This document shows, one piece after another, positions 1,329 to 20,342 of a DNA stretch of 33,660 nt. Within the stretch, counting starts at the first letter, position 1. Each line of letters starts with the position of its first letter. A program made the position numbers and the translations under genes. The stretch is from Ferrimicrobium sp. (lineage in GTDB: Bacteria; Actinomycetota; Acidimicrobiia; Acidimicrobiales; Acidimicrobiaceae): assembly GCF_027319265.1 (NCBI RefSeq), contig NZ_DAHVNP010000033.1, positions 1 through 33,660 of the forward strand, in the 5' to 3' direction. The notes beneath the pieces were generated by a model. That model was given only the letters and a program-made list of their open reading frames with translations. It did not search any database and was not told where the DNA came from.

Positions 1329-1332
1329 GGAA

Positions 1333-1689: not shown

Positions 1690-1724
1690 TGGAAACTCCC
1701 TGTTATCTTTGTCTATGACATATA

Positions 1725-1740
1725 ATACCCAACCGGGTAT
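1725..1740. promoter_or_regulatory. CsoR/CstR-like operator palindrome upstream of DsrE-FmdE unit
   Basis: A perfect inverted repeat, ATACCC-AACC-GGGTAT, sits 36 bases upstream of the DsrE start. On the minus strand a TATTAT hexamer lies at its downstream edge, so a bound protein would block RNA polymerase. The A/T-C/G-A/T layout (TACCC-N4-GGGTA) is the one known for DUF156 repressors (CsoR, RcnR, CstR). The CstR branch senses persulfide. No regulator of that family is encoded in this window. Confidence 0.6.
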
Positions 1741-1839
1741 AGCAGCTCGATATTCCCGACTCGTTCCCAGCTCCATTCTCTGTGGGCACAAAGCAACCCA
1801 AACTCGGGCGGTTTCCCTCACATGTTTGCTGTAACTCAT

Positions 1840-4486: not shown

Positions 4487-5014
4487 GTACCGGTCCACAG
4501 GTTCCGAACACCCCGCACAACTGAAAGCCGGACTCAAACCCGCTCCCCCCAACACATCTGACCCCAACCTCGAATGCACTAGCCCAAAGTGCCTCCAGAA
4601 GTACTCCATCTCAGGTCGGCGGCCTAACTACCTACCTACCTACCTACCTACCGTAGGTAGGGATTTGAAAATACGTCTAGGCAGCGCGGTTCAAGGAGTG
4701 ATTCCGGGAGTAACTGTCGCTGGGAGCGTCGTACAAATCACCTGCATCTCGCACCTCGTCATTGCTCCTAGCGGTTCCACCCGATCTCGCAACCGCATTG
4801 CTTCGAGAAAGCAACACGCAATATCCCTAGAGAAAACTCACTGTCCCCATCTACCAAAGCGTATGTTTTACACAAAGCTATGGCTACGATCATCAATCGC
4901 GATGAGACAGATACGTGAGGCATCATGAATCCCACTAGGCTTAATTGAGAGCAGTGCTATTGCCCTAATGGTCCGCTGGTGTGCGGTAGGACCATGTCGA
5001 GGGAGGCCCCGAAG
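4487..5014. other. Intergenic region upstream of the SQR-like gene
   Basis: No convincing gene. A plus-strand frame at 4665-4928 has no domain or ribosome-binding site. The region holds the CTAC tandem repeat/hairpin at 4628-4661 and presumably the promoter of the flavoprotein gene at 5015. TTGAGA at 4945 and TAATGG at 4966 are weak, short-spaced candidates only. Confidence 0.4.
4628..4661. repeat. (CTAC)6 tandem repeat running into its own inverted copy
   Basis: Six uninterrupted CTAC units (4628-4651) are followed by the inverse TAGGTAGG at 4654-4661. The last two units therefore pair with the inverse in a stem of 8 bp with a 3-base loop. It is a short tandem repeat liable to slip during replication, and also a potential hairpin or protein-binding site. 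It lies about 350 bp upstream of the SQR-like gene and 140 bp after the MFS stop. Confidence 0.85.
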
Positions 5015-7606: not shown

Positions 7607-7799
7607 CATCGCGCGATGGAGTAGTACCGACACAAGCGATAGTCTTCCCACAAACAAACCATCAGGGCTTGGCCCGCTGGTGTGAGATTAACGCGACAAT
7701 GATGTCGTCAACAACCCAACCGTGGGACCTATTTGCTACCAATGGCTGACGTATGACCCCGGGCCACTTTGCAAGGCATCGTGCGCCCCTCTCGACAAC

Positions 7800-7805
7800 T
7801 AGCCT
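7800..7805 (+). promoter_or_regulatory. Leaderless -10 box of the ArsR gene
   Basis: TAGCCT is followed by 7 bases and the ATG at 7813. No ribosome-binding site lies in between, so a leaderless message is likely. This supports the ATG at 7813 over the upstream ATG at 7753. Confidence 0.45.
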
Positions 7806-7812
7806 AGAGTCA

Positions 7813-8193
7813 ATGACCAACAGCGAGGAACTAAAGGACGAGTACGAGCTCCTTGTTTCAATCATGTGCAAAGCGCTGAATGATCCTAAGCGGCTTCTGA
7901 TCCTCACCCTTCTTGGGGAGCGACCACGCACCGTCTCCAACCTCGTGGAGGAGATAGGTTCACCGCAGACCAACATCTCCCAACATCTCACCGTCCTCAG
8001 GGACCGCGGACTCGTCAATGCGACCCGAGAAGGGACCTCGGTGACCTACTCCCTCTCCCATCCCCAGATCCTCACCGCGATCACGACGCTCCGCGAAGTG
8101 ATGCATGACGAGATTGACCGAAAACAACGACTCATCGCCACCGACGAAGAGCCACTCCCGACTGCAAAGGTCTCTCGACTCCGCCAGGCCTAA
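7813..8193 (+). CDS. ArsR/SmtB-family regulator, probable sHdrR-type sensor
   Basis: Protein of 126 aa with a winged helix: KALNDPKRLLILTLL (helix 2-3), SPQTNISQHLTVLRDRGLVN (recognition helix) and TREGTSVTYSLSHP (wing). The only cysteine is C19, just before KALNDPKRL. Persulfide-responsive ArsR proteins (SqrR, BigR, sHdrR) normally use two cysteines, so this one must either work as a dimer with one Cys per chain, use another ligand, or have lost sensing. It sits between the lipoate ligase and the sHdr operon, convergent with the latter. Control of the sHdr operon is inferred from location only. The start at 7813 is preferred over 7753 because the first 20 residues of the longer version are not ArsR-like. 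Confidence 0.85.
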   Translation: MTNSEELKDEYELLVSIMCKALNDPKRLLILTLLGERPRTVSNLVEEIGSPQTNISQHLTVLRDRGLVNATREGTSVTYSLSHPQILTAITTLREVMHDEIDRKQRLIATDEEPLPTAKVSRLRQA

Positions 8194-8222: not shown

Positions 8223-8873
8223 CTAGACGCCAGGTAACGCTGCCACGACCCAGTACTTGCCGGCTTCTTCTACCACGCGTAGCTGCTGAAGCCCCTCATC
8301 CGCGGGTCCTCTCATTCGCTCCCCGGTGTCAATGGCGAACTGGCTACCGTGTTGGGGGCAGGTCATGACGCCATCCTCGATCACCGCACCCCCCAAGGGG
8401 CTGCCAGCATGAGGGCAGGGACCCACCAAGCAGACCGGCTTGCCCTGGCCTTTGATCAAAATCAACTCACCGAGTTCGTGTTCAACACAGGCCAGGATGC
8501 CCAGACGACCCGCTACGTCAGCGACCGAACACAGCGGGACCAACCGCGGACGTTGCGACCCCGACTCGAACTCCTTCACAAGACGCCGGAGCAAGACTCC
8601 CAGCCCACCAGAGTTCTCGATTCTGTCCGCGCCAGCTCGCTCGGCAGCAACCCAGAGATCCTGGTCCTGAACCATCGTATGGGCGATGAGGGTAGCACGG
8701 GGATTCTGCGCGCGCACCTGGGTGATCCTCGCTAGATCGGCCTCCTCCACCAATGGAAGAAGCAGCACCTCCGCAGCAACCGGATCGGATGTGAGCTCAC
8801 TATTGCTCTGTCGCCTTGCACGCTCGACACTCATGCGAGCGACGCTGTCGTCCGAATCGACATAGATCAACAC
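8223..8873 (-). CDS. Degenerate receiver domain fused to a Rieske [2Fe-2S] ferredoxin
   Basis: Product of about 216 aa from a GTG at 8873; the start is uncertain, since the open frame runs to 8981 inside dsrE2 and an ATG at 8834 would cut the first strand. Residues ~1-100 look like a response-regulator receiver: an initial VLIYVDSDDSV strand, later RATLIAHTM and WVAAERAGADR, then a final helix. The phospho-accepting Asp position appears to be replaced (LLLPLVEEADL). Residues ~113-214 are a Rieske domain with CPH (C153, H155) and CPQHG (C172, H175), the complete cluster ligand set. It is the last gene of the sHdr operon. A soluble electron carrier, possibly docking through the receiver fold, is inference. 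I know of no described function for this fusion. Confidence 0.75.
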   Translation of the reverse strand: MLIYVDSDDSVARMSVERARRQSNSELTSDPVAAEVLLLPLVEEADLARITQVRAQNPRATLIAHTMVQDQDLWVAAERAGADRIENSGGLGVLLRRLVKEFESGSQRPRLVPLCSVADVAGRLGILACVEHELGELILIKGQGKPVCLVGPCPHAGSPLGGAVIEDGVMTCPQHGSQFAIDTGERMRGPADEGLQQLRVVEEAGKYWVVAALPGV

Positions 8874-8892
8874 GAAAGGGTCAATTTCTGCC

Positions 8893-9381
8893 TCATATGA
8901 ACATACTGATGTCAGCCTCAGCCGCCATGTTAATAAAACTCGCTGCACCGATCGGGGGTTGGATTCCGTCGATGAAATCATCCTTGCTCAGTCCGTAGAG
9001 ATCCATGGTCATCTGACAGGGGTGCAGTCGAACCTCCAGATCGAGTGCCATCTCAAGCAGCTCCGTTGGAGAAGCGACCTTGTGATCGGTTGCGAGAGTC
9101 TTGATCATCTTCGTGCCGACCCCAGCAAAGTTGATCTTGCCCAACCGCAGCCGATCGGTCCCACCCGCATCGACGAGCGACTCCGCCTTCTGCATCCAGT
9201 TGCTACCCGTCACTCTGATACTGTTCTTCTGTAGCACCCGGAGGCCCCAGAAGGTGAAAAACACATCCACCTCTAGTCCCGAAGCTGCAGCAGTCGTCGC
9301 CAATATCAACACCGGCCATACCCGATCCAAGTCATTGCTCCAGCAGATCATCGCCATCTTCTTGGTCTCATCATTAGTCAC
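8893..9381 (-). CDS. dsrE2: DsrE2-like sulfurtransferase/sulfur-carrier protein
   Basis: Protein of 162 aa of the DrsE_2 type: MAMICWSNDLDRVWPVLILA at the start, VDVFFTFWGLRVL, and HPCQMTMDLYGL with C122 at the conserved Cys place, followed by a C-terminal ASFINMAAEAD. DsrE2 proteins accompany TusA in sulfur oxidisers and move persulfide sulfur. GTG at 9381 is the start, with GGGGGA six bases upstream. It lies 21 bases after lbpA2 and its end is followed directly by the Rieske fusion. C13 is a second cysteine. Membrane helices of some DsrE2A forms are not evident, so it looks soluble. Confidence 0.82.
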   Translation of the reverse strand: MTNDETKKMAMICWSNDLDRVWPVLILATTAAASGLEVDVFFTFWGLRVLQKNSIRVTGSNWMQKAESLVDAGGTDRLRLGKINFAGVGTKMIKTLATDHKVASPTELLEMALDLEVRLHPCQMTMDLYGLSKDDFIDGIQPPIGAASFINMAAEADISMFI

Positions 9382-9402
9382 GCCGAATCCCCCTTTTCCT
9401 TT

Positions 9403-9849
9403 CTACTCAGTACATCGAAAGCACTGAATTCCCTCGCGCTCGATCATCTCGCGATAGTGCTCGAACGCTTCTGGACCATCGACCAACCCCTCCAACTCCT
9501 CATTGGTGGAGTATTCAATCAGGTAGAGCCAGCCAACCTCATAGGGGTCTCTGTTGGCCACGGCAACATCGGCATCAAAGGCGACCCGATTATTCTCCCG
9601 GATCACCCCGGTCAACGGTGAGATCAAGGGACCCACCCACTTGGCGCTCTCTAACACCGTCAACGGCCGTCCACGCGCCACGTTCCGTCCTACCGGCTTC
9701 CAACTCAACTGCACCAACCGGCCCATCCGCGTTTGGGCAACGTCGGTCATCCCCACCCGGGCAAGCCCTCCCTCGACCTTCACCCAGACATCGGCATCGA
9801 GGTCATAGTAGCGATCGGTAGGGATAGCGCACCCGGCCCACGTCTCCAT
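9403..9849 (-). CDS. lbpA2: Lipoate-binding protein (GcvH-like), second copy
   Basis: Protein of 148 aa with the GcvH fold. The lipoyl-lysine motif is LESAKWVGP with K70, preceded by RVGMTDVAQTRMG, the strand pattern of GcvH/LbpA. LbpA proteins of the sHdr system differ from glycine-cleavage GcvH and carry lipoate for sulfur-bound intermediates. It is 2 bases downstream of the first lbpA gene and shares its K70 spacing exactly, so the pair looks like a tandem duplication that diverged. C-terminal C145 (and possibly C142 in IQCFRC) is absent from plain GcvH. Start ATG at 9849. Confidence 0.88.
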   Translation of the reverse strand: METWAGCAIPTDRYYDLDADVWVKVEGGLARVGMTDVAQTRMGRLVQLSWKPVGRNVARGRPLTVLESAKWVGPLISPLTGVIRENNRVAFDADVAVANRDPYEVGWLYLIEYSTNEELEGLVDGPEAFEHYREMIEREGIQCFRCTE

Positions 9850-9851
9850 CG

Positions 9852-10292
9852 CTAACCGTCGCTACACGCAATTCCTTGATCATCGAGGAACGCCTTGTAG
9901 CGTTGTACCCCCTCGATGCCAGTCGCAAGTTCAGCGAGGTCACCCTCCCAATTACTCGGGGCAACTCTCGCAACCCAACCCTCACCATACGGATCCGAGT
10001 TCAAAAGTCCTGGAGTCCCCACCAGGCGTTCATTAACCACGAGCACCTCACCCTCAACAGGACAGGGCACAGGACCGACCCACTTGCCACTCTCGACGGT
10101 GGCGAGACTGCGGCCCTTCTTGATTGGCTTACCCGCGGCCTTCAAGGATACCGAGATAATCGTCTTCGCGAGATTCTGCGCCACATCGGTGAGTCCAATC
10201 ACTACCTCATCACCATCGGGGCGTGCCCAAACATGCTTCTCGATCAGATAGTACAGATCCTCTGGGAGCTCGCATCCGTTTTCCTTACTCAT
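9852..10292 (-). CDS. lbpA1: Lipoate-binding protein LbpA (GcvH-like), first copy
   Basis: Protein of 146 aa. The lipoyl-lysine motif VESGKWVGP has K70, and IGLTDVAQNLAKTI is the typical GcvH/LbpA strand. The ATG at 10292 was chosen because the MSKENGC start matches the family length and overlaps the stop of the preceding small gene by 8 bases; the frame to 10340 overlaps that gene more. AGGAG sits right before the start. In sHdr sulfur oxidation, lipoylated LbpA is the acceptor/carrier that the sHdr complex acts on (established for related systems). C7 and C143 are also present. Confidence 0.9.
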   Translation of the reverse strand: MSKENGCELPEDLYYLIEKHVWARPDGDEVVIGLTDVAQNLAKTIISVSLKAAGKPIKKGRSLATVESGKWVGPVPCPVEGEVLVVNERLVGTPGLLNSDPYGEGWVARVAPSNWEGDLAELATGIEGVQRYKAFLDDQGIACSDG

Positions 10293-10590
10293 CTCTCTCC
10301 TCTTCTCGATGATAACCAACTTCACTGGGATGTTCACCAATCAGATGTTGAACAAGGATATCCATCCCCACCAGCCTGATATCTGCTTCGTACTCCTCAA
10401 TGAAACCATCCTCGGGGTGTCCACGTTTGATCGCCTGCACATAGGCCTCCTCACAGAGCGGGCAGCTGACCCGGTACGAGGGTCGACTCCCTTTTGCCGC
10501 GATGGCGACGAGTTCTGGATGACGGGCAATCAGGTGTCGATGAAGACTCTCATATCCGAGATTTTCCTCCTCACAGGTCGGACACTCCAT
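10285..10590 (-). CDS. Small Cys/His protein with two zinc-finger-like halves
   Basis: Protein of 101 aa with two similar halves. The first has CPTCEEENLGYESLHRH then LIARHPE; the second has CPLCEEAYVQ and, about 40 residues later, DILVQHLIGEHPSE. Each half pairs CxxC with a His-rich helix, as in C2H2-type zinc fingers. The C-terminus is strongly acidic/basic. Its start overlaps the EMO stop by one base (TAATG) and its stop overlaps lbpA1, so it is translated within the operon. I do not know a function. Zinc binding and a structural or assembly role for the sHdr/LbpA machinery are inference. Confidence 0.7.
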   Translation of the reverse strand: MECPTCEEENLGYESLHRHLIARHPELVAIAAKGSRPSYRVSCPLCEEAYVQAIKRGHPEDGFIEEYEADIRLVGMDILVQHLIGEHPSEVGYHREEERDE

Positions 10591-12755
10591 TAGACATCCA
10601 CCAGTTCGGTCGCCTCGGTCGCCTCTGCGAAGAGTTCAACGATGTCGATCACCTTCAGCGAGTCCTCAATCCCTACCGTCTTGACCGCATCAGAGAACAT
10701 CGCGTAATCCTTGGGACAGGCAACGACGAAGTAGTCAACCCCAAGCCCCTGAGCCTCCTTGATTCGGTTGACCGACGGCCGTTCCTCCAGGTACGAATCA
10801 TCCATCCAGATTCTTCCACCCCCGGCCCCACAACAGAAGGAGTTCGCTCCATGACGTGGCATCTCGACAAGCTCACAACCAAGTCCAGCGATCACCGCCC
10901 TCGGTGTATCAAAGATACGATTGTACCGACCCAGATAGCAGGGATCGTGATAGGTCACCCTGCGTCCTAAGCTGCGCGGAGCAACCTCCTCGGTGAACAT
11001 GAGGATAGCGAGTAGCTCAGAGTAGTGGAGTACGGGCTTGTCAAGCCCAAAGGACGGATACTCATTGCGAAGCGTGTTGAAGGTATGAGGATCGGTCGTG
11101 AAGATCTTATCAAACGAGGCTTTGGAGAAGGCCGCCATATTCTGTTCAACAAGCATCTCGAAGAGCCCCTCCTCGCCTACCCGGCGTACATCGTTGCCGG
11201 CGTTACGCTCGTCATCGAAGAGAATCCCGAACGAGACCCCACTCGCATTGAGCACCTTGGCAAGCGTCTGCGAGATACTCATCAGGCGCTCATCAAAGGA
11301 GGCAAAATCACCCAAGAACCACAGATACTCAACATGCTCTTTGCGTGCATCGACGATGGGGAAGTCCAACCCCTTGGTCCAGCGTGCACGCATTCGAGCG
11401 CTCTTACCAAAGGAGTTGCCCTGGGTCGCAATATTCTGCAACGCCGACTGTAGCGTCGGCTCCATCTCTCCCCGATCAACCAACGAGCGTCTGAGCTGTA
11501 CGATGGTTGGCACGTGTTCGATACCAACTGGGCAGATCTCAACACAGGCCATACACGTGGTACAGGACCAAAGCGTCTTGTCAACGATCACGTCCCCAGC
11601 GAGTTGCCCATCACCCACCAGTGGACCCGACGCCACCGGGCGAGTTTCGGTATCGAGTAGAAGAGGGATATGCCGACTGCGGTCGACCCACTGGCGAAGG
11701 TCAAGAATAAAATCACGGGGTGAGAGCGGGGCACCAGCCGTTCGCGCAGGACAGACAGCGTGACAGCGCCCGCACTTGGTGCAAGAATCAAAGCCCAATA
11801 ACTCCCGTGGCGTAAAATCATCGATGGAGGAGTAGCCGGTCTTACCCTCTGGTGGCGCGGGAATACGCCTCGTCGTTGCGAGATCCCTGACGGCGAGATT
11901 GGTCGGGGAAGCCAACATATGCCACGCCTTTGACCAGGGAATATAGGCAACAAATGCAAGAGCCATCCCGACATGGACCCACCACAACCAGGCATGAATC
12001 GCCCGAGCACCGGCCGAGCCGACACCGAGCGAGACCAGCCCCTTACCAACCAGATAACCCAGCCAGGTCCAGCGCTCAAAACTCGGAAAACCCTCACCAT
12101 CGATGCGCAATCCCTGAATGAGGATCCCGGTGAGAAGGATTAGCAGGAGACCCACTACAAAGACCTGATCGCCGATCACGATCTTGGCCCTGGAGTACCC
12201 TCCCTCTGGACGTTGTGCCCGCGTGTAGTCGAGCGCAGTCTCGCGCGAGAACCAACGCCGATAGGTGAGCAGAATAGTTCCCACCAGCGCCGCTAAACCA
12301 GCCAGGTCAAAGACGGCGTTGTAGCCTAGATAGAACGGACCCTGAAAGAAGCTGTAGGTATGTCCGGTGATGAACCGGGAAGCATTGCCAAGGATATCGT
12401 AATCAAGGCTCAGAATCGAGGTTGCAAGAAAGAGCCCGATGAATCCCCAAAACAGCAGGAGATGGCTCACCCCAACCTTTCTCTTCGACTTGGTGACCGT
12501 CTTGTTCGCAGCGATGGTGACCAAGGAACTCGCGAACTTTGGACGCTCTGACACCTCCGGGATATCTCTGGCATCGCGTCGCCGCAACCAGGAGAAGGAC
12601 GCTGAGCGCCTTCCGTGGTTATATTCGATGACCCGCTTGAAGAAGCCGGTAAAGAAGATCGCCAAGACGACGACGGCGAGAAGATAGAACACCATCTTCG
12701 CCGTCTCGGTCTCGCCCCCGAAAATCTTCCTCGTCTCGATGACCCCAACCAGCAC
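10590..12755 (-). CDS. emo: Membrane FeS oxidoreductase, ETF:(mena)quinone oxidoreductase type (EMO)
   Basis: Protein of 721 aa. Residues ~20-280 hold six or so membrane helices of a NarI-like cytochrome b type. Then come two [4Fe-4S] motifs, C325/C328/C331/C335 (CTKCGRCHAVCP) and C398/C401/C404/C408 (CTTCMACVEICP), then two CCG domains as in HdrB/HdrD. The second CCG domain is intact (HDPCYLGRYN with C606; NSFCCGAGGG with C641-C642; C680) and the first lacks its cysteines. This layout is that of the Rv0338c-like/EMO proteins next to etfAB, which pass electrons from EtfAB to menaquinone. GTG at 12755 follows GGAGG by about 6 bases and the etfA stop by 2 bases. It is the membrane exit point for electrons from sulfur oxidation (inference from context). 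Confidence 0.87.
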   Translation of the reverse strand: MLVGVIETRKIFGGETETAKMVFYLLAVVVLAIFFTGFFKRVIEYNHGRRSASFSWLRRRDARDIPEVSERPKFASSLVTIAANKTVTKSKRKVGVSHLLLFWGFIGLFLATSILSLDYDILGNASRFITGHTYSFFQGPFYLGYNAVFDLAGLAALVGTILLTYRRWFSRETALDYTRAQRPEGGYSRAKIVIGDQVFVVGLLLILLTGILIQGLRIDGEGFPSFERWTWLGYLVGKGLVSLGVGSAGARAIHAWLWWVHVGMALAFVAYIPWSKAWHMLASPTNLAVRDLATTRRIPAPPEGKTGYSSIDDFTPRELLGFDSCTKCGRCHAVCPARTAGAPLSPRDFILDLRQWVDRSRHIPLLLDTETRPVASGPLVGDGQLAGDVIVDKTLWSCTTCMACVEICPVGIEHVPTIVQLRRSLVDRGEMEPTLQSALQNIATQGNSFGKSARMRARWTKGLDFPIVDARKEHVEYLWFLGDFASFDERLMSISQTLAKVLNASGVSFGILFDDERNAGNDVRRVGEEGLFEMLVEQNMAAFSKASFDKIFTTDPHTFNTLRNEYPSFGLDKPVLHYSELLAILMFTEEVAPRSLGRRVTYHDPCYLGRYNRIFDTPRAVIAGLGCELVEMPRHGANSFCCGAGGGRIWMDDSYLEERPSVNRIKEAQGLGVDYFVVACPKDYAMFSDAVKTVGIEDSLKVIDIVELFAEATEATELVDV

Positions 12756-12757
12756 CC

Positions 12758-13717
12758 TCAGCCTCCGACTTGATCAGTCAATTCCGGAACGAGGTCGAAG
12801 AGATCCAAGGTAGTGCCGTAGTGGGCAACCTCAAAGATCGGTGCTTTTGCGTCGGTGTTGCAGGCGATGATGACATCGGCGCTGCGCATCCCCTCAAGAT
12901 GTTCGGGTGCCCCCGAGATTCCAAAGGCGAGATAGACCGTCGGCTTGACCTTCTTGCCTGACTTACCGACCTGGTGGGGCTTTGGCAACCAACCCTGGTC
13001 GATCACCGGACGTGAGGCAGAGAGTGGTGCCTTCAACGCCTCGGCCAACTCTGCCACCAGTTCAACATTCTCCTTGGAGCCAATGCCCCGCCCAACCGAC
13101 ACGAGAAGCGGTGCAGCGGTGATGTCCACACCACTGCTGTCGGGCTCGCGAAGCTCAATCGCAACACCTTTCGCACTCACTAGTGCCCCACCGACATCGA
13201 CCACTTCACGTCTTGGCTCACCGGCCACTCGCCCAGCATCCGAGCCAAACGAACCCGGGACCACCGAGAGCACCGCCGGGAAGGCATCGATCTCCACCTC
13301 CGACATCAACTTGCCGCCATAGAGCTGCGAGGTAACCACCAGCGAACCCCCCTCCAGCACCGCGTTTGTGACGTACGAGGCGAGCACACCGCCTAATTGG
13401 GTTGCCAAGGCACCAGCCAGGTCGATCCCCACCGTACCGGTACTGACCAAAACGACCTTCGGGTTGGCGCTGCGGATGACCTCCCCAAGCGCCACCTCCC
13501 ACTGCGGCGCACAGTACGCGGCCTCCATGCCACGCATCGAGAAGAGCACATCAGCCACCCCAAAAAGATCTTGGCCAGAGGGCTCACCAGCGAGCGCGAG
13601 CGCCAGCTCACCCGAGAAGCCATCGCTGAGCTCGCGGCCCTTTCCTAACAGCTCATAGGTAACATCGGGGACCTCCCCTGCTACCGCCTCAGCTATAACC
13701 AACACATCAACCGACAT
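12758..13717 (-). CDS. etfA: Electron transfer flavoprotein alpha subunit
   Basis: Protein of 319 aa, the normal EtfA length. The C-terminal FAD domain has GRGIGSKENVELVAELAE, then PLSASRPVIDQGWLP and KPTVYLAFGISGAPEHLEGM, with NTDAKAPIFEVA near the end: the classic EtfA signature. The N-terminal domain I is alternating alpha/beta. AAAGGAAGG precedes the ATG at 13717. It pairs with etfB (order etfB-etfA) between shdrB3 and emo. In sHdr systems with EtfAB, the flavoprotein takes electrons from the FeS subunits (established context); bifurcation versus simple transfer cannot be decided from sequence. Confidence 0.95.
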   Translation of the reverse strand: MSVDVLVIAEAVAGEVPDVTYELLGKGRELSDGFSGELALALAGEPSGQDLFGVADVLFSMRGMEAAYCAPQWEVALGEVIRSANPKVVLVSTGTVGIDLAGALATQLGGVLASYVTNAVLEGGSLVVTSQLYGGKLMSEVEIDAFPAVLSVVPGSFGSDAGRVAGEPRREVVDVGGALVSAKGVAIELREPDSSGVDITAAPLLVSVGRGIGSKENVELVAELAEALKAPLSASRPVIDQGWLPKPHQVGKSGKKVKPTVYLAFGISGAPEHLEGMRSADVIIACNTDAKAPIFEVAHYGTTLDLFDLVPELTDQVGG

Positions 13718-13743
13718 CGGACCTTCCTTTCACACCTCCGGGA

Positions 13744-14514
13744 CTATACAAGACCCTTGGACTTGATAATCTCAATGATCTCCGCTGCCACTTCCTTGGG
13801 GGAACCCTTGAGCATGGTCGCTCCGGCTCCCGTCGACTCAGGGGGATAGAGCCGGCGGACCTTCACTTGAGCAGTAGTGTCGCCGACTTCGACCTCGTGT
13901 TCAGCGATCTCGCCCGTCTGCATCGCCTGGCGAATTCTTGAGATAGGCGCATACCTTGGTGTCTGCTTGGCGGCTTGGATGCCGAGCACCGCTGGTAAAT
14001 CGAGTTCGCTCACCCCCAGGAGTCCACCGCCCATCTCTTGGGTTACCCTGACTTTGGTGTCAGACCCCTCGACGCCAACCACCACCGCCGCGTGAGGAAC
14101 CTCCAGCAGGGAGCCGAGGATACCGGCGAGCTGACCATCTAAGTCATCGGCAGCCTGTACCCCAGTGAGGACCAGATCAAATGGCTCGCCAGCGAGGAAG
14201 GAGGCGAGGCGTTGGGCACGTTCGCGTGAACGAACCCAGCCATCCGGATCATTCCCCGTTAACTTGACCACTCGATCAGCCCCCTTGGCCAACGCCGCAT
14301 AGAGCGTTTGATCAACGTCTGGCTCATCGAGGGCAACGACGGTCACCGACGCCCCTAACGTATCCTTTAACGTCAACGCCTCCTCGAGGGCAGCCTCATC
14401 CCACTCATTGGAGACGAACTTGACAAACTCGCGGTCGATATCAGTCCCTGCATCGTTGACCTCCAACTCCTCAACAAGGTCCGCTAACTGCCGCATGGCA
14501 ACGACGATCTGCAT
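13744..14514 (-). CDS. etfB: Electron transfer flavoprotein beta subunit
   Basis: Protein of 256 aa. It starts MQIVVAMRQLADLVEEL and has the EtfB AMP/nucleotide-binding domain; VRVTQEMGGGLLGVSELDLP and AVLGIQAAKQTPRYAP match the EtfB signature region. Its ATG at 14514 follows the shdrB3 stop by one base, with GGAGG seven bases upstream, so it is translationally coupled. It forms a heterodimer with EtfA. About 26 bases separate it from etfA. Confidence 0.95.
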   Translation of the reverse strand: MQIVVAMRQLADLVEELEVNDAGTDIDREFVKFVSNEWDEAALEEALTLKDTLGASVTVVALDEPDVDQTLYAALAKGADRVVKLTGNDPDGWVRSRERAQRLASFLAGEPFDLVLTGVQAADDLDGQLAGILGSLLEVPHAAVVVGVEGSDTKVRVTQEMGGGLLGVSELDLPAVLGIQAAKQTPRYAPISRIRQAMQTGEIAEHEVEVGDTTAQVKVRRLYPPESTGAGATMLKGSPKEVAAEIIEIIKSKGLV

Positions 14515-14515
14515 C

Positions 14516-15823
14516 TCAACTCCTCCAATCCTCTCCTCGCATCGCGATATCTACCATCTCGGCTATATCCATCACTCGTAGCCCTTCGTTACCCGTCGAT
14601 TTTGCCGCATCCTCAAATCTGGATACCTCGTAGGGACATGCGACCGCGAGAATGTCGGCACCGGTTGCCGCCGCCTCCCTCACCCGTCGTTCGGAGAGTC
14701 GCTCCGAGAGCTGATTTGCATTGAATCCATCGAGCCACATGCCACCTCCCCCTCCGCCACAGCAGTATGAGTTCTCCCGGCACCTTCCCATCTCGAGCAG
14801 TTTGACACCGGGTATTGCCTCGATGATCTTGCGCGGTGCCTCATACTCCCCATTGTGCCGTCCTAGATAACACGGATCATGGAAGGTAACGGTGGCATCA
14901 AGGCTTCCCGCAAAGTCAATCTGATCGAGAAGAGGGGCCAGCAGCTGCGAGTAGTGAAAGGCCTCGAAGGTGTGTCCATACTTTGGATAGATCTTCTTCA
15001 AGGCATTGAACCCATGTGGATCTGGGGTGACGATACGGTTGAACTGATACTTCGCGAGCACATCGACCACCTCCTCCATCAAGGACTCAAAGAGACCCTT
15101 CTCGCCCGCCAGTCGCTGCGAGTCTCCCAACGTCTTCTCCTCGGCGCCCAAGATAGCAAAATCGACATTCAAGCTGGTCATGATGCGTGCAAAGGCTTGC
15201 GCAGCCTGTTGGCCCCTGGGATGGAAGCTCCAGTAGTCCTCCACATAGAACAACACATCGACAGGACTTGGGTCACTTGCCAACACGCGTACCTCTACTC
15301 CAGCGCCCTTGGTCCACGCGTGTCTTCGACGCGGATTCTCGCCTAAGGCATTCCCATAGCGAAACGTCTTCTCCATCACCTGTTGGAGTTCGTCAGGGAT
15401 GGTCCCCTCGACCATCGCAACCTCACGTACGGCTGGCATTACCTCGATCATGTTCACCTCTTTGGGGCAGACGCGAAGACAGTTGCCGCAGGTGGTACAC
15501 TTCCAAAGCTCATCAGATTTGAAGAGATCAAGGCCTGTCTGGACGGCCCGGTGAATCTTGCGGGGACCATACTCCGACACCAGATCGACCGGACACACCG
15601 GAACACACTTGCCACAGCCGAAACAGTATTCGAGGGAGTTGCCACCCTCGAGCGCAGCGATCTTTGCAAAGCCTGCCGCGCTATAGTCGGTCAATACCCG
15701 CGAATGGAGCATCCTTGAGGACGAACCTGAGACGTCCCACTCTCTTCCAGAGAGTGACGACGTGACAATAGCTTCGTCTAATTCGGACACTCCGGCGGGT
15801 TGCTTAGTACCCCCTATTGGCAT
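14516..15823 (-). CDS. shdrB3: sHdr FeS subunit, fused HdrC-HdrB type (sHdrB3)
   Basis: Protein of 435 aa joining HdrC- and HdrB-like halves. Two [4Fe-4S] motifs are intact: C67/70/73/77 (CFGCGKCVPVCP) and C109/112/115/119 (CTTCGNCLRVCP). Two CCG domains follow. The second has C318 (HDPCYLGRHN), C348, C354-C355 (SYCCGGGGGG) and C396. The first (about residues 195-290) contains no cysteine and is degenerate. The same layout, including the dead first CCG domain, is seen in the EMO protein downstream. The start is ATG at 15823 with GGGAG upstream; it overlaps the preceding hyp gene by 20 bases. Systems with fused sHdrB3 plus etfAB are the type II sHdr arrangement (established knowledge). Confidence 0.88.
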   Translation of the reverse strand: MPIGGTKQPAGVSELDEAIVTSSLSGREWDVSGSSSRMLHSRVLTDYSAAGFAKIAALEGGNSLEYCFGCGKCVPVCPVDLVSEYGPRKIHRAVQTGLDLFKSDELWKCTTCGNCLRVCPKEVNMIEVMPAVREVAMVEGTIPDELQQVMEKTFRYGNALGENPRRRHAWTKGAGVEVRVLASDPSPVDVLFYVEDYWSFHPRGQQAAQAFARIMTSLNVDFAILGAEEKTLGDSQRLAGEKGLFESLMEEVVDVLAKYQFNRIVTPDPHGFNALKKIYPKYGHTFEAFHYSQLLAPLLDQIDFAGSLDATVTFHDPCYLGRHNGEYEAPRKIIEAIPGVKLLEMGRCRENSYCCGGGGGGMWLDGFNANQLSERLSERRVREAAATGADILAVACPYEVSRFEDAAKSTGNEGLRVMDIAEMVDIAMRGEDWRS

Positions 15824-16550
15824 CAACCTCTCCCTTCACCCCGAGAATACGCCCCATAAACTCACCCAGATCGGGGAGGAGGCTGTTGAACTCCTTGGTC
15901 ATCCGCATTTTGATCACCGTGGATGAATAGATGCCATAGACCCCTGCAAGAAAGACATCAAGACCGTACGGACTCTGCTCGGCCGATACCGGCAGGAGGG
16001 AGGCCGCACTCAGGGTCTGGCGAAGATACTCTGAGGCAAAACGTACCTGTGCGTAGGTCTTGGCGTCATCGATCCCGTATAAGACAACGGGATCCTCGAC
16101 GATCAGGGCGAGCGCACCCGTCTCCTGCTCGGGATCGAGGACCCACCGACGCCACAGCGGATGGGTCAACGGATCGACGATATGGAGCACTTCGGAGGTC
16201 AAGTCCCGCAGAAGTCCCTGGTCTTCGTAGCCACACCCTCCAATCGTGGTAAAGACCACTAGCGGGTCTTCCCCTTTCTTGGCGAGTTCTATTCCGTCGA
16301 TGAGCACCGCAAGGTCCGCCTGGGCCATGAGTTCTCTGCGATGACGGCGCACACCAAAGATGAATCCGCACAACTGCGAGAAGATCTCTGGGCCTTCATC
16401 CAGTCGATCGATCAGCGCGACCGCTCTCTGCCTACGTTCCGCCAACTTCTCCACCAACGACACCTGGGTGGACTTCGCCACCTGAAGCGCAATCGCTGTC
16501 GAAAACTCCTGCGCGGCTTCGAGATCGGCCAGTTGGGTCTGGGTCATCAT
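15804..16550 (-). CDS. sHdr-associated conserved protein ("hyp" of the shdr locus)
   Basis: Protein of 248 aa with no recognised domain. The position between shdrA and the C2/B2-type subunit is that of the conserved hyp gene of sHdr loci. It has a helical start (LADLEAAQEFSTAIALQ), a GGCGYEDQGLLRDL patch with one cysteine, and a helical C-terminus ending MGRILGVKGEVDANRGY. The ATG at 16550 has GGTGG about 6 bases upstream; the longer frame to 16613 enters shdrA. The gap to shdrA is 10 bases. Function unknown; a complex subunit or assembly factor is inference. Confidence 0.8.
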   Translation of the reverse strand: MMTQTQLADLEAAQEFSTAIALQVAKSTQVSLVEKLAERRQRAVALIDRLDEGPEIFSQLCGFIFGVRRHRRELMAQADLAVLIDGIELAKKGEDPLVVFTTIGGCGYEDQGLLRDLTSEVLHIVDPLTHPLWRRWVLDPEQETGALALIVEDPVVLYGIDDAKTYAQVRFASEYLRQTLSAASLLPVSAEQSPYGLDVFLAGVYGIYSSTVIKMRMTKEFNSLLPDLGEFMGRILGVKGEVDANRGY

Positions 16551-16560
16551 CTGGTACCAC

Positions 16561-17607
16561 CTAGGCCAAGGCGTGGAGGTCTCGAACCGCCTTCGCGGCC
16601 GCCAAACCACCACTGGAGGCGCAATCCTCTAGATCACTCGGCCCAAGGGCGGCCCCCACCGCGTAGATGCCCGCTACCGACGTCGATACCGTGTCGAGGG
16701 GAGAGTGAGCGGCCTCAATGAAGCCGTACTTATTTTGCTTGACGCCAAGAAGTGCTGCCATCTGCCGCGTTCCAGGGGAGGCCTCCATGCCGACGGAGAG
16801 CACGACGAGATCCATCAGAACCTCCATTGGACGGCCCATCGTGGTGTCCTCGCCTCGCACAAGAAGTTTGCCATCCTTAGGGAGTACCTCGGTGATAATT
16901 CCCTTCACATACTGCACGTGATGCTTCTCCTGGGCAGGCCAGTAGATCTGGTTTTCCCAATATCCATACATACGCATGTCGATGTAGAAGATAAAGACCT
17001 CAGCCGAAGGAATCAACAACTTGATCTCCGTAGCCTCCTTCGAGGCGACGCCGCAGCAGACCTTTGAACAGTACTCGTTTCCGATCTGTCGATCACGCGA
17101 ACCCACGCACTGGACGAAACAAATCCGTTGCGGAGTCTCGCCATTGGAGGGTCGCGTCACCGCACCCTCTTTCAACATCGCCTCAAGATCCTGAAGGGCA
17201 ATGACGTCAGGGAACTCGTAGTAACCGTAGAGCTGTGTCTCACGACCGGGATCAAAATGGGTGAACCCAGTGGCAATGACGACGGAGCCAGCTTGCACCT
17301 TGGAGGTCGTAGAACCCGTCAGGACATCGAGCGCGAAGGGAGCATGGTCACCCGACACCCCCACCACCTTGGAGCTCGTGAGGATCTCGACATTCTCAAA
17401 GGATGTCAGTTGTGTGATGAGTCTGCCCATCACCTCCTCCGCGCTCTCAAGGTACGGCGTCAGCGACGCATAGTTCTCCTCAATCGGACGACCACCAAGA
17501 TATGCATTCTTCTCTATCACGGTCACTGGTGCTCCCAGCTCAGCCGCGGCGATCGCCGCCGAGATCCCAGCTGGACCACCACCTATGACGACCAATCGTT
17601 CTTGCAT
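16561..17607 (-). CDS. shdrA: sHdrA, FAD/[4Fe-4S] subunit of the sulfur-oxidising Hdr-like complex
   Basis: Protein of 348 aa, the short form typical of sHdrA. Residues 7-14 (VIGGGPAG) bind FAD. A Cys-rich stretch C163, C167, C180, C184, C185 (ICFVQCVGSRDR then EYCSKVCCG) holds the [4Fe-4S] cluster of the HdrA family. A second FAD motif (GIYAVGAALGP) lies near the C-terminus. There is no thioredoxin-reductase or ferredoxin extension, unlike methanogen HdrA. Start ATG at 17607, 18 bases after shdrB1. It is the flavin core of the complex that oxidises lipoate/persulfide-bound sulfur in the cytoplasm. Confidence 0.95.
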   Translation of the reverse strand: MQERLVVIGGGPAGISAAIAAAELGAPVTVIEKNAYLGGRPIEENYASLTPYLESAEEVMGRLITQLTSFENVEILTSSKVVGVSGDHAPFALDVLTGSTTSKVQAGSVVIATGFTHFDPGRETQLYGYYEFPDVIALQDLEAMLKEGAVTRPSNGETPQRICFVQCVGSRDRQIGNEYCSKVCCGVASKEATEIKLLIPSAEVFIFYIDMRMYGYWENQIYWPAQEKHHVQYVKGIITEVLPKDGKLLVRGEDTTMGRPMEVLMDLVVLSVGMEASPGTRQMAALLGVKQNKYGFIEAAHSPLDTVSTSVAGIYAVGAALGPSDLEDCASSGGLAAAKAVRDLHALA

Positions 17608-17625
17608 CGTTACCTGCCCCGTTCC

Positions 17626-18816
17626 CTATGCGTCAACATCTGCCCAGGTGAGGAACTCTTGTCCCCCACTCTGAAGCCGCTTGGCATCCGCTTGAAACTC
17701 AGCCCAAGCCGCCTCCCAGTCAATACCCATCTTTTCGAGCAGTGGACGATAGTTCGTCGAGTGCCAATGCAGCTGCGCCACTTTGAACGGGTGCGCACCC
17801 ATCGCTAGCGCGGCGAACTGGGCCTCGCTCATGACCGGGACGCCGACGTTGCGCTCATGCGCCTGCGCCGCAAACTGGCTCTTGTCAAGCGCCGTCACGC
17901 AACCGGTATCATGGGTCAAGACCACATCAGGATCGGCCTCTTCCTTCATCACTTCGATCTTCCTCAGCGTTGCAAAGGAGCGGGTGAAGTCACGCTGCAC
18001 GAGGATATGGCGAAAGCCAAACCCACAGCAATCAAAGAAGGTGGAGTAACTCCGTAAATCAGCCCCCAGCGCTAGTACGAGCCCACTCACTGCGGCCGTC
18101 CGCTGACCGTGATAGACATCGGGATCGAAGATCGCATCTCCTTCGACAAGTTTGTAGTAATGACATGCGGGGTGCACCGTCACCGCGATGCCAGAGACGT
18201 CGCGCACGGCCCGCGCACTGATCTCATCACGCACCGCATAGAGCCACTCTGAATAATGAATGATCTCCTCTGGCAGTACCAACTGTTTGCCGAGCCGATG
18301 GAGCACCTTGGTCACCTGCTGGCGGAGCGCCCCATCGTGGAGCAGCTCTGCCCGAACCTCCTTGTAATGACCGTACGAGGTGCCACAATGGATCAGTGGG
18401 AAGTTGCCCGTCTCATAGGCCGCCGCAAAATTCCTCACTGCCACCGCTGCCTGGGCCGCTTGGTTCGAGGTAGCCGACGCATAGTAATTCCAGGCGGTAC
18501 AGGAGGTTTGATCCTCCGGGTCGATGTAATCATAACCGAGCTTGCGCATCAACCAAAAGATCGAGGTCGAGTAGCCCGGAATGTGACCGCACTGCCCACA
18601 TGACTTGTGATGCCAAAGGTTCGCCTTTTGAATTTTCTTGATGACCCCGTACTTGGTGGGAACCTCCACAAAGTCGCCGGTAATCCGCTGTACGACAAGC
18701 TCACCCTCCGCTTCCAACTCGAAGAGACGCTCATGAAAATCCTCTGAACGACGATCCGGACCCCGTTCAAACTTCTCCTTCTTGCCAAGAATTACCGAGA
18801 CCGCACCATCACTCAT
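17626..18816 (-). CDS. shdrB1: sHdrB1, CCG-domain subunit
   Basis: Protein of 396 aa with two CCG domains that would bind noncubane [4Fe-4S] clusters. The first has C73/C76 (CGQCGHIPGY), C106 (SCTAWNYYAS) and C144. The second has C218 (HPACHYYK), C263-C264 (FFDCCGFGFRH) and C306 (THDTGCVTALDKSQ). An N-terminal ~65-residue extension precedes them. The ATG at 18816 overlaps the shdrC1 stop (ATGA), giving coupled translation. It forms the HdrB-like catalytic pair with sHdrC1 in the complex. Confidence 0.94.
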   Translation of the reverse strand: MSDGAVSVILGKKEKFERGPDRRSEDFHERLFELEAEGELVVQRITGDFVEVPTKYGVIKKIQKANLWHHKSCGQCGHIPGYSTSIFWLMRKLGYDYIDPEDQTSCTAWNYYASATSNQAAQAAVAVRNFAAAYETGNFPLIHCGTSYGHYKEVRAELLHDGALRQQVTKVLHRLGKQLVLPEEIIHYSEWLYAVRDEISARAVRDVSGIAVTVHPACHYYKLVEGDAIFDPDVYHGQRTAAVSGLVLALGADLRSYSTFFDCCGFGFRHILVQRDFTRSFATLRKIEVMKEEADPDVVLTHDTGCVTALDKSQFAAQAHERNVGVPVMSEAQFAALAMGAHPFKVAQLHWHSTNYRPLLEKMGIDWEAAWAEFQADAKRLQSGGQEFLTWADVDA

Positions 18817-19532
18817 ATCTCTATCCCTTCTTCCTCTAACTTCTCTTCCATAATCTCTTCAAGAATCATGTGGATTCCTTGATCTACCTGTGCAATCATG
18901 TCCAATGCCCCTGTCTCTAACCAGATAACGTAGAGCTCTACAAGCGTTCTATCAGCTACTTTCCAGCCCGTCGTTGTGGTGTGCATCGTCTCAGGAGGGA
19001 GCATTCTGCGCCATAGATCGAGGTTCTCTGAGACATCCTTGACTTCAGGGCCCCAGTCGGGGAATGCATCAGGTTGGAGCATGTCAGGGGAGACCTGAGT
19101 TCCTGTCGACATGATCTTGTAAATGATTCGGGAGTACCCAGCGAGGGCATCCTTGGCAGAGTGGAGACCCTCCTTGACCGCAACTTCACGCATAATGGTT
19201 ATGACCCCCCCTGGGTTATTGCCCCTTGGGCATCGCAGACAGGAAAAACACTGTGAACACTCCCAGATGTCCTCCTGCATCTGCTGGAACATCAGGTCGA
19301 TATCACGTCGGGCTGCCGCTTGGGCAATCCGGCGTGGTGAGAAGTCGTAGAACCGTGCAGAAGGACAGGCAGCAACGCAGATTCCACACTCGTAACAACC
19401 ATAGAGGTAGTCACCAAAGCGTGCATCGGTCATGACCTGCCCGATCAGCCGTTCCTTCTCTCCACGATCTACATCGGTATACCCTGCTACATGATCTCTC
19501 TTCATGTACGGGTCGAGCGTCGCTGCCGGCAT
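18813..19532 (-). CDS. shdrC1: sHdrC1, two-[4Fe-4S] ferredoxin-type subunit
   Basis: Protein of 239 aa. Two cluster motifs are complete: C46/49/52/56 (CYECGICVAACP) and C92/95/98/101 (CSQCFSCLRCP). The C-terminal ~100 residues are helical and acidic (EEIMEEKLEEEGIE). It hands electrons between sHdrA and sHdrB1. Its start overlaps the dsrE3A stop by one base and its stop overlaps shdrB1, so the three are translated together. Confidence 0.94.
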   Translation of the reverse strand: MPAATLDPYMKRDHVAGYTDVDRGEKERLIGQVMTDARFGDYLYGCYECGICVAACPSARFYDFSPRRIAQAAARRDIDLMFQQMQEDIWECSQCFSCLRCPRGNNPGGVITIMREVAVKEGLHSAKDALAGYSRIIYKIMSTGTQVSPDMLQPDAFPDWGPEVKDVSENLDLWRRMLPPETMHTTTTGWKVADRTLVELYVIWLETGALDMIAQVDQGIHMILEEIMEEKLEEEGIEI

Positions 19533-19915
19533 TAGAACGACACCACCGCATCCGCGTTCATGGCGAGATCGTTGAAGGCGGCACCGCCAATCATCTCCAC
19601 GCCATCGATCAACTCCTCGATCGCAAGATCATTGAGATCGAGCGAGGGTTGGCAGACCCAAAGACGCACGCCAAGATCTGTAGCCTGTTTCACAAAGTAG
19701 GAGAGCCGTTGACCTCGGTCGCCTTTTGGACCAATCTTGTCAACTACCGTCTTCTTTAGGAGCTGAGGACCGTACATCGTGAAATAGATCCCCACCTCCA
19801 CCTCCATCGCAGCGGCGGACGCTGCCAGGAAGAATGGGGTAGCACAACGACCAGGATCGTTCTCACCGTGCGTCTGCACATAGAGCACTTTCCCCTCGAA
19901 CTCACCGGTCCACAT
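19532..19915 (-). CDS. dsrE3A: DsrE3A-like persulfide carrier
   Basis: Protein of 127 aa with the DsrE fold: GKVLYVQTHGENDP, VGIYFTMYGPQLLKK, LWVCQPSLDLND with the conserved Cys, and a hydrophobic end AMNADAVVSF. DsrE3A next to TusA is standard in sHdr loci, where they exchange persulfide sulfur. A second Cys lies in GRCATPFFL. Start ATG at 19915. A 76-base gap separates it from tusA. It is the second gene of the operon. Confidence 0.9.
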   Translation of the reverse strand: MWTGEFEGKVLYVQTHGENDPGRCATPFFLAASAAAMEVEVGIYFTMYGPQLLKKTVVDKIGPKGDRGQRLSYFVKQATDLGVRLWVCQPSLDLNDLAIEELIDGVEMIGGAAFNDLAMNADAVVSF

Positions 19916-19991
19916 CTTCTCTCCCCCTCACTTATCGTGCGACACAAACACGCAAATTGACCTGAAACCGTCTTTGGAAAAGAACTAGGGT

Positions 19992-20228
19992 CTATCCACC
20001 CCGTTTGAGTAGAACATGAAATACATCGCCCTCTTTGGTGATCCCCAGCAGTTCATTACCGGTCCTAGAGGTCCACGCATTCATGTCCGGCTCGACCCCT
20101 GGATCAGTCGCGAGAAGCTCAAGCACCTCACCCGGTTGTAACTTCTTGATGGCCTGCGACGTCTTGATAACGGGTAACGGGCACTGTAGTCCCTTGCAAT
20201 CCAAAATCTCCGTCGGCTGCTCAACCAT
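19992..20228 (-). CDS. tusA: TusA sulfur-carrier protein
   Basis: Protein of 78 aa with the TusA hallmark: EILDCKGLQCPLPVIKTSQ, where the Cys of CPxP carries the persulfide, and a C-terminal GNELLGITKEGDVFHVLLKR strand. The ATG at 20228 gives the normal family length and has AAAGGGGGG just upstream; the longer frame to 20312 adds residues not found in TusA. It is the first gene of the sHdr operon and delivers sulfane sulfur to DsrE3A and the complex. Confidence 0.95.
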   Translation of the reverse strand: MVEQPTEILDCKGLQCPLPVIKTSQAIKKLQPGEVLELLATDPGVEPDMNAWTSRTGNELLGITKEGDVFHVLLKRGG

Positions 20229-20342
20229 ACGCCCCCCTTTTGGCACACCTCGCACTGCGCACCCGATCTCCCCTACGATCGCGGCACGCCGTACCGGTAC
20301 AAACATGCGCATTCACTCATGTTCGTACCTAATCATGTCACC

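What the first reader, a model, noticed from the sequence alone, without database searches (positions are those of the whole stretch)
8223..20228. Complete type II sHdr sulfur-oxidation operon in an actinobacterial setting
Fourteen genes, mostly overlapping or within about 20 bases of each other (the widest gap is 76 bases), hold every expected sHdr component (TusA, DsrE3A, C1, B1, A, hyp, fused C2-B2, EtfBA, EMO, LbpA), followed by genes not usually listed as part of it. It gives a full electron route from lipoate-bound sulfur to quinone in one transcript. The order is seen directly; the pathway role is established for related organisms.
Basis: partly seen in the sequence, partly recalled or inferred. 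Interest (0 to 1): 0.8.

Follow-up and report, generated by a model that had tools for sequence, protein, structure and literature searches.

The report
Sulfur-oxidation operon in an actinobacterium
This is a real and intact set of fifteen neighbouring genes that should let an actinobacterium from an acid-loving family burn sulfur for energy; that kind of gene set is already described for actinobacteria, but it carries a small, little-noticed zinc-finger-like protein that travels with it in most of the cases looked at.

Summary
On the minus strand, 20228 to 8223, lies a tight run of 15 genes (not 14): TusA, DsrE3A, sHdrC1, B1, A, H, fused C2-B2 (=B3), EtfB, EtfA, EMO-like, a 101-aa double zinc-finger-like protein, two LbpA, a DsrE2-like and a receiver-like/Rieske protein. 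It meets the published type II rule (C1-B1-A-H-B3 plus etfAB in one cluster). The actinobacterial setting is not new: Cao et al. 2018 list Actinobacteria and Firmicutes as "Group III", and I find it, whole or cut by contig ends, in Acidimicrobium ferrooxidans, Ferrithrix, Amycolatopsis, Gordonia, Conexibacter and MAGs. Added here: the zinc-finger-like gene follows EMO in 31 of 35 testable loci and co-occurs with sHdrH in 395 genomes of the class (21 both, 4 alone, 2 sHdrH alone); the internal lipoate block of most actinobacterial copies is missing, and LipS1 and LipS2 were not found in this genome. Against a simple reading: a review lists A. ferrooxidans and Ferrithrix, both carriers, as not oxidising elemental sulfur. 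Co-transcription, function in this organism and the zinc-finger-like protein's role are inferred.

The parts
20296..20329 (-). imperfect inverted repeat (12-base arms, one mismatch, 10-base spacer) upstream of TusA; candidate operator
   Evidence: computed; it spans the upstream in-frame ATG at 20312, which favours 20228 as the TusA start; partly similar dyads, not the same letters, lie upstream of TusA in some relatives; the script found no such repeat in L015, L019 and L020; weak evidence
19992..20228 (-). TusA sulfur carrier
   Evidence: Pfam TusA 2.3e-22; Cys-16 in GLQCP
19532..19915 (-). DsrE3A-type sulfurtransferase
   Evidence: Pfam DsrE 8.6e-14 and DrsE_2 2.6e-16; the label DsrE3A rests on position and literature
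18813..19532 (-). sHdrC1, two [4Fe-4S] ferredoxin-like
   Evidence: Fer4_8; HdrC models, below their cut-offs
17626..18816 (-). sHdrB1, CCG-domain subunit
   Evidence: CCG 5.2e-9; HdrB model 3.9e-35, below its cut-off
16561..17607 (-). sHdrA, FAD/Fe-S subunit, short form
   Evidence: best PDB match 6tjr over residues 5-340, E 1.6e-73; CVGSRD..CSK.CC motif conserved
15804..16550 (-). sHdrH ('hyp'); no Pfam or NCBIfam match; the frame extends to 16613 but relatives support a start near 16550
14516..15823 (-). sHdrB3 = fused C2-B2 (Fer4 + CCG); TTG at 15826 or ATG at 15823
13744..14514 (-). EtfB
   Evidence: ETF 3.1e-24
12758..13717 (-). EtfA
   Evidence: ETF_alpha 5.4e-32
10590..12755 (-). EMO-like membrane protein: hydrophobic N-terminal part, Fer4 pair, CCG domains
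10285..10590 (-). 101-aa double CxxC...HxxxxH protein whose ATG overlaps the EMO stop (TAATG)
9852..10292 (-). LbpA (first), lysine in ESGKW; the frame extends to 10340, likely start ATG 10292
   Evidence: GCV_H 2.2e-32; Lys-86, Cys-23 and Cys-159 (numbers of the long frame) conserved in 8 of 8 rows
9403..9849 (-). LbpA (second), lysine in ESAKW
   Evidence: GCV_H 5.6e-27; Lys in 11 of 11 rows; Cys in 8 of 11, the 3 others being the block-borne paralogues
8893..9381 (-). DsrE2-like sulfurtransferase
   Evidence: DrsE_2 5.2e-45; DsrE2 model 104.8 bits, below its cut-off of 210
8223..8981 (-). response-regulator-like N-terminal domain plus C-terminal Rieske [2Fe-2S] domain; true start uncertain
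   Evidence: Rieske 9.7e-10; the four Cys/His ligands invariant in 10 of 10 rows; model and fold matches
7753..8193 (+). ArsR-type regulator, convergent with the operon, one cysteine only
   Evidence: HTH_5 1.7e-13
6518..7606 (+). lipoate-protein ligase (LplA-like)
   Evidence: LplA-B_cat 2.6e-37; lipoyltrans 3e-30, below its cut-off

Best explanation
A type II sHdr (sulfur-oxidising heterodisulfide reductase-like) operon of a member of the Acidimicrobiaceae. Most likely working: TusA and the two DsrE-type proteins pass sulfane sulfur to the sHdr complex (C1-B1-A-H-B3), which oxidises it to sulfite while it is bound to or handed over by lipoylated LbpA. The electrons pass from the sHdr/LbpA system to EtfAB and on to the membrane protein EMO, which reduces quinone. 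The ligase at 6518-7606 probably charges LbpA, and the ArsR regulator at 7753-8193 probably controls the operon. Shown here: the genes, their order, intact motifs and conservation. Inferred from related organisms: sulfur transfer, sulfite as product, the role of LbpA. Inferred only: EtfAB-EMO as exit to quinone, control by ArsR, and that the 101-aa protein is an accessory of EMO.
For: Domains and order. The type II rule, shdrC1B1AHB3 plus etfAB in one cluster (PMC11582611), is met. sHdrA matches PDB 6tjr over nearly its whole length, E 1.6e-73; that 6tjr is the Hyphomicrobium sHdrA is my recall. Both LbpA carry the lysine and the N- and C-terminal cysteines that separate LbpA from GcvH (criterion from PMC6067878). 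The order from TusA to the Rieske gene is kept in relatives: 10 of 13 loci reach the tail and all 10 have it (one cut in the last gene by its contig end; two with a lipoate block inserted); the other 3 end at contig edges. Sulfobacillus 'hdr cluster II' with etfAB and a long CCG membrane protein was described earlier (PMC4378227, passages).
Against: PMC8790237 (table seen in passages) lists Acidimicrobium ferrooxidans, Ferrimicrobium acidiphilum and Ferrithrix thermotolerans as S0 oxidation minus; the first and third carry the operon (L027, L036). LipS1 and LipS2 were not found in this genome, so LbpA maturation is unexplained. No match to SoxB (no control genome passed that model's cut-off either) or to the Pfam ATP-sulfurylase model was found, so the source of sulfane sulfur and the fate of sulfite are open. 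The ArsR lacks the two-cysteine sensor.
Confidence: 0.78

Rival explanations
1. The operon serves the removal of sulfane sulfur met during contact with sulfide minerals, or another sulfur compound than S0, rather than growth on sulfur; the host lives on ferrous iron and/or organic carbon.
For: Two carriers are tabulated as S0-negative iron oxidisers; sHdrH was not found in 2 of 6 other genomes of the genus (G002, 98% complete, and G006, 83% complete), as expected of an accessory trait; no match to SoxB.
Against: A 15-gene operon with a dedicated quinone exit is costly for mere removal; the Alicyclobacillus carrier L080 belongs to a species tabulated as S0-positive; Cao et al. report nearly all hosts of such loci as sulfur or mineral-sulfide oxidisers.
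Confidence: 0.25
2. The complex runs in the reductive direction (ETF-driven disulfide or sulfur reduction), for example during anaerobic life.
For: HdrABC-type enzymes of methanogens are reductases; EtfAB and EMO-like pairs also work in other directions in other bacteria (recalled).
Against: The set holds TusA, DsrE3A, LbpA and sHdrH, which belong to the oxidative system studied in Hyphomicrobium; sHdrA is the short form like 6tjr.
Confidence: 0.06
3. The tail genes (DsrE2-like and receiver-like/Rieske) are a separate unit that merely lies behind the operon.
For: In L039 the two lie in opposite orientation behind LbpA; no Rieske gene was found behind LbpA in L040, L152 and L154.
Against: In the relatives' loci that reach it the pair follows LbpA in the same direction in 10 of 10; the junctions are 21 and -89 bases in the window.
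Confidence: 0.25

Closest known systems
Group III hdr-lbpA arrangement of Actinobacteria and Firmicutes (Cao et al. 2018, PMC6067878)
   Same: Hdr-like genes with two or three LbpA and EtfBA, in Actinobacteria
   Different: The text that I read (section 5 and passages) names no zinc-finger-like gene and no Rieske gene; the figure and source tables were not available to me
Type II sHdr system (definition in PMC11582611)
   Same: C1-B1-A-H-B3 and etfAB in one cluster
   Different: Adds the 101-aa gene and the DsrE2-like and receiver-like/Rieske genes at the tail; the passages that I read do not mention them
Sulfobacillus hdr gene cluster II (PMC4378227)
   Same: etfAB and a long membrane CCG protein beside hdr genes; the same subunits and DsrE, TusA, lipoate genes are described for that paper's clusters
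   Different: Bacillota; its sequences were not compared here; the Alicyclobacillus locus L080 has no detected 101-aa gene
Type I sHdr of Hyphomicrobium denitrificans
   Same: C1, B1, A, H and LbpA logic with sulfur transferases; nearby ArsR-type regulator
   Different: C2 and B2 are separate there, the lip genes are linked, and sHdrR has two sensor cysteines

Membership tests
type II sHdr | shdrC1-B1-A-H-B3 and etfAB in one syntenic cluster | tested here: met
   rule
type II sHdr | C2 and B2 fused into one protein (B3) | tested here: met
   Fer4_8 at 65-124 and CCG at 313-398 of one 436-aa frame
type II sHdr | sHdrA short form with FAD part and the CxGSRD..CSxxCC motif | tested here: met
type II sHdr | oxidises lipoate- or carrier-bound sulfane sulfur to sulfite | not testable with these tools
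   needs biochemistry or physiology
LbpA | lipoyl lysine plus N- and C-terminal cysteines absent from GcvH | tested here: met
   both window proteins have them; first LbpA 8 of 8 rows, second 8 of 11 rows for the cysteines; criterion
Group III arrangement | Actinobacteria or Firmicutes, two or three LbpA, EtfBA linked | tested here: met
LipS1/S2 lipoate assembly that usually accompanies sHdr | LipS1 and LipS2 in the genome | tested here: not met
   only background scores for LipS2 and no match for LipS1 in G000; the assembly is 95.9% complete; not a defining feature, since 74.3% of sHdr bacteria have it
sHdrR sulfane-sulfur sensor | ArsR-type with two conserved cysteines | tested here: not met
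   one cysteine; criterion
EMO (ETF:quinone oxidoreductase of the membrane Fe-S/CCG kind; definition recalled) | membrane anchor, [4Fe-4S] pair and CCG domains in one chain beside etfAB | tested here: met
   quinone activity not testable here

The most novel reading that the evidence does not exclude
The 101-aa double zinc-finger-like protein is an unrecognised and near-obligatory partner of the EMO quinone branch in actinobacterial and myxococcal type II sHdr systems, needed to build EMO or to dock EtfAB/LbpA on it. In addition, the tail protein of the Acidimicrobiaceae couples a degenerate receiver to a Rieske cluster as a redox sensor of the same route.
Probability: 0.35. Interest if true: 0.55.

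Novelty: new member of a known kind. Interest (0 to 1): 0.4.

Why it matters
It shows that the type II operon is shared by actinobacterial iron oxidisers that are tabulated as not oxidising elemental sulfur, which is a testable contradiction. It also points to one small conserved protein that could bear on how electrons leave the complex, and to a lineage in which LbpA would have to be lipoylated without LipS1/LipS2.

Tried and rejected
Chance clustering was rejected because the order recurs in relatives. A type I assignment was rejected because C2 and B2 are fused and etfAB is in the cluster.

I looked for a known fold of the 101-aa protein. Foldseek gave no match at E 0.001 or better, the second look by VIA-align 2 gave nothing above Z 4.4, and a profile of 11 rows gave nothing better than E 0.0087 among PDB sequences. 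This leaves its fold undecided; it does not show it to be new. A rubredoxin-like reading (two CxxC knuckles) was considered, but four conserved histidines fit two CCHH metal sites better; coordinates of the model were not available to check geometry.

The search for sulfur oxygenase reductase in the own genome rang in no control genome, so it says nothing. The SoxB search found nothing in the own genome, but no control genome passed the cut-off either (10 of 14 gave weaker matches). The promoter scan found fewer promoter-like sites (3) than its shuffles (mean 5.0) and terminator-like sites (14) about 1.3 sd above them (mean 9.8), so it neither supports nor opposes one transcript.

Limits of the locus set: the named-genome scan used two short peptide patterns, 108 stretches matched and 57 distinct loci were confirmed, so it is not exhaustive; records near the window's genome may be left out, and 10 of the 57 are the same contigs as loci taken from the unnamed relatives. 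Many loci end before the tail of the operon, so the spread of the Rieske gene outside the family is poorly tested.

Literature limits: no listing or passage that I saw showed the zinc-finger-like or Rieske gene in an sHdr operon, but figures, supplements and most subscription papers were not readable, so I do not claim that they are unpublished.

Full report
What is there. Open frames and Pfam matches confirm a run of minus-strand genes from 20228 down to 8223. In order: TusA, DsrE3A, sHdrC1, sHdrB1, sHdrA, sHdrH, sHdrB3 (fused C2-B2), EtfB, EtfA, an EMO-like membrane Fe-S/CCG protein, a 101-aa protein, two LbpA (GcvH-like), a DsrE2-like protein and a Rieske protein. sHdrH has no Pfam or NCBIfam match and is named by place and relatives. 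The widest gap is 76 bases, between TusA and DsrE3A; the other junctions run from -89 to +26 with the longest frames, and the larger overlaps shrink if the later starts suggested by relatives are used. The ATG of the 101-aa gene overlaps the EMO stop codon (TAATG). Seven genes were tested for selection against close relatives: dN/dS is 0.014-0.18 in 13 of 19 comparisons, and 6 were saturated.

Is it a type II sHdr system? Li et al. 2024 (PMC11582611; passages) ask for shdrC1B1AHB3 and etfAB in one cluster. This is met. sHdrA aligns over residues 5-340 with PDB 6tjr (E 1.6e-73), with the cysteine motif kept; that 6tjr is the Hyphomicrobium sHdrA is recalled. Cao et al. 2018 (PMC6067878; section 5, passages) describe a lysine and two cysteines as marks of LbpA; both window LbpA have them.

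Is it known? Yes, as a kind. Cao et al. [quoted passage not shown] Sulfobacillus cluster II with etfAB and a long membrane CCG protein was described in 2014 (PMC4378227; passages).

Where the window comes from. It is contig 33 of a 2.88-Mb, 95.9% complete assembly. One genome of the same family is a single contig of 2,158,157 bases, the exact size of Acidimicrobium ferrooxidans (PMC3035218; passages). Another shares its contig length of 31,769 with a record of Ferrithrix thermotolerans DSM 19514. So the family holds Acidimicrobium and Ferrithrix; the genus of the window is not settled here. sHdrH is in 4 of 6 other genomes of the genus and in 14 of 41 genomes searched, the own one included. 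The own genome has RuBisCO. The Pfam ATP-sulfurylase model and SoxB had no match.

Gene order in relatives. Of 13 relatives' loci, 10 reach the tail and all 10 carry the DsrE2-like and Rieske genes behind the two LbpA; L016 is cut within the Rieske gene, and L021 and L026 have a lipoate block inserted. The other three (L020, L024, L025) end at contig edges. A scan of one genome for each of 84,980 species, with two peptide patterns drawn from the B3 alignment, gave 57 loci, 10 of them the same contigs as relatives' loci. They come from Actinomycetota (Acidimicrobiia MAGs, Aciditerrimonas, Ferrithrix, Amycolatopsis, Gordonia rhizosphera, Mycobacteriaceae, Nocardioidaceae and Kineosporiaceae MAGs, Conexibacter, Paraconexibacter), three 'Deltaproteobacteria' MAGs placed in Myxococcota by the tree tool, and Alicyclobacillus tolerans. 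Several are cut by contig ends; in Gordonia the stretch held ends before the Etf genes. In the B3 tree of 60 rows (the window, and the loci without 10 duplicates and the short row L083) the 56 actinobacterial rows are parted from the other 4 by a branch with SH-aLRT 100. It is a quick tree without bootstraps, and L080 and L081 have long branches.

The missing lipoate block. Most actinobacterial copies carry ligase-LbpA-LipS1-ligase-LipS2 between B3 and EtfB. In L021 the profiles give LipS1 at 221 bits (cut-off 230) and LipS2 at 197.8 bits (cut-off 270); both lie below the curated cut-offs. By the labels used for the tree, 39 of 60 rows have the block and 21, the window included, do not, with at least 6 changes. 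Of the 39, 13 rest on a ligase right behind B3 in loci that end soon after (LipS1 seen in 7 of these 13); 26 were measured by the B3-Etf distance. In the own genome LipS2 gives only background (25 bits, against 186-198 bits in G005, G008, G010, G012 and G015) and LipS1 nothing. G001, G003, G004 and G013, which carry the operon, look alike (22-28 bits for LipS2; for LipS1 one 20-bit match in G003 and none in the others). Canonical LipA is present in 24 of 25 genomes, the own one included. Tanabe et al. 2023 (PMC10332631; passages) report LipS1/S2 in 74.3% of sHdr bacteria, so lacking them is not unheard of. How LbpA is lipoylated here is open; the ligase at 6518-7606 is the obvious candidate.

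The 101-aa gene. Two CxxC...HxxxxH units are conserved. A profile finds it behind EMO in 10 of 10 relatives' loci with complete EMO, and in 31 of 35 of the 57-locus set in which EMO is found and not cut by the end of the locus (EMO was found in 39 of 57; 4 of these are cut). It was not found in L040, L074, L080 (Alicyclobacillus) and L083. The two sets overlap: the 41 finds are 34 different sequences. In 395 genomes of the class it occurs in 25 and sHdrH in 23 (I take the two draws to be the same because count and listed handles agree). Both occur in 21; the zinc-finger-like gene alone in G513, G521, G668 and G672, all under 90% complete; sHdrH alone in G635, whose contig ends at the end of EMO, and in G653, where the sHdrH match lies at a contig edge. 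Fisher p is 8e-29 (the genomes are related, so this is descriptive). All 25 matches lie beside two LbpA and 22 of 25 beside EMO within the 2.2-3.3 kb held; two of the three misses (L106, L122) lie at contig ends, the third (L105) does not show EMO in the stretch held. In the phylum sample 4 of 296 genomes have it, all four beside EMO and LbpA. In the Myxococcota loci L078 and L082 it stays at EMO although the next LbpA lies about 3.3 kb further on, so EMO rather than LbpA is the likelier partner. AlphaFold gives a confident model (pLDDT 87.9, pTM 0.78); the fold comparisons are told under Tried and rejected. I infer an accessory or docking role; a nucleic-acid-binding role is not excluded.

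The tail protein. Its N-terminal part models as a response-regulator-like alpha/beta domain, without a conserved acceptor Asp at the third strand (by eye on the rows), and its C-terminal part as a Rieske ferredoxin with all four ligands invariant in 10 rows. Beyond the relatives' loci and their duplicates, a Rieske match was seen in L039, L043, L055 and L151, in L055 not behind LbpA; it was not seen in L040, L152 and L154, and most other loci end before the place where it could lie.

Regulation. The ArsR gene converges on the operon (29 bases between the stops) and has a single cysteine, unlike sHdrR (PMC12423496, passages, which also notes many such regulators without the pair). An imperfect 12-base dyad lies at 20296-20329; it is not letter-conserved in relatives.

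Does the host oxidise sulfur? Not shown. PMC8790237 (table in passages) lists A. ferrooxidans, Ferrimicrobium acidiphilum and Ferrithrix thermotolerans as S0-minus and Alicyclobacillus tolerans as S0-plus. Carriers in my data are A. ferrooxidans (L027), Ferrithrix (L036) and an A. tolerans strain (L080). Either the first two use other sulfur compounds, or the operon is not used for growth on sulfur.

Verdict. A correct observation of a known kind of system. The parts worth following up are the EMO-linked zinc-finger-like gene, maturation of LbpA without LipS1/LipS2, and the conflict with reported physiology.

Noticed in passing
window 4979-6307 (+): FAD-dependent pyridine nucleotide-disulfide oxidoreductase; best NCBIfam match is type III sulfide:quinone reductase (5.9e-26, 91 bits, far below the cut-off of 525). 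A 95% identical gene is also adjacent in G004 (L015 17368-18753).
   Followed up: partly
window 525-1839 (-): FmdE-domain protein and a 168-aa frame without Pfam or NCBIfam match that looks DsrE-like by eye; the two frames overlap.
   Followed up: partly
L056: Further HdrA and HdrB3 matches on the same contig upstream of the main operon, suggesting a second sHdr-like copy.
   Followed up: no
L059, L062, L064, L075, L077: Type II sHdr loci (L062 cut before the Etf genes) in Amycolatopsis, Gordonia rhizosphera, a Nocardioidaceae MAG and Paraconexibacter, genera not usually thought of as sulfur oxidisers (recalled).
   Followed up: partly
L078, L079, L082: MAGs placed in Myxococcota with the EMO plus 101-aa gene pair, LipS1 and LipS2 matches and a different arrangement of LbpA.
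   Followed up: partly
L150, L152, L154: In other lineages of the class a DsrE2-like gene (28-31% identical to that of the window) sits between TusA and DsrE3A; in L153 and L154 the lipoate block follows the LbpA pair instead.
   Followed up: partly
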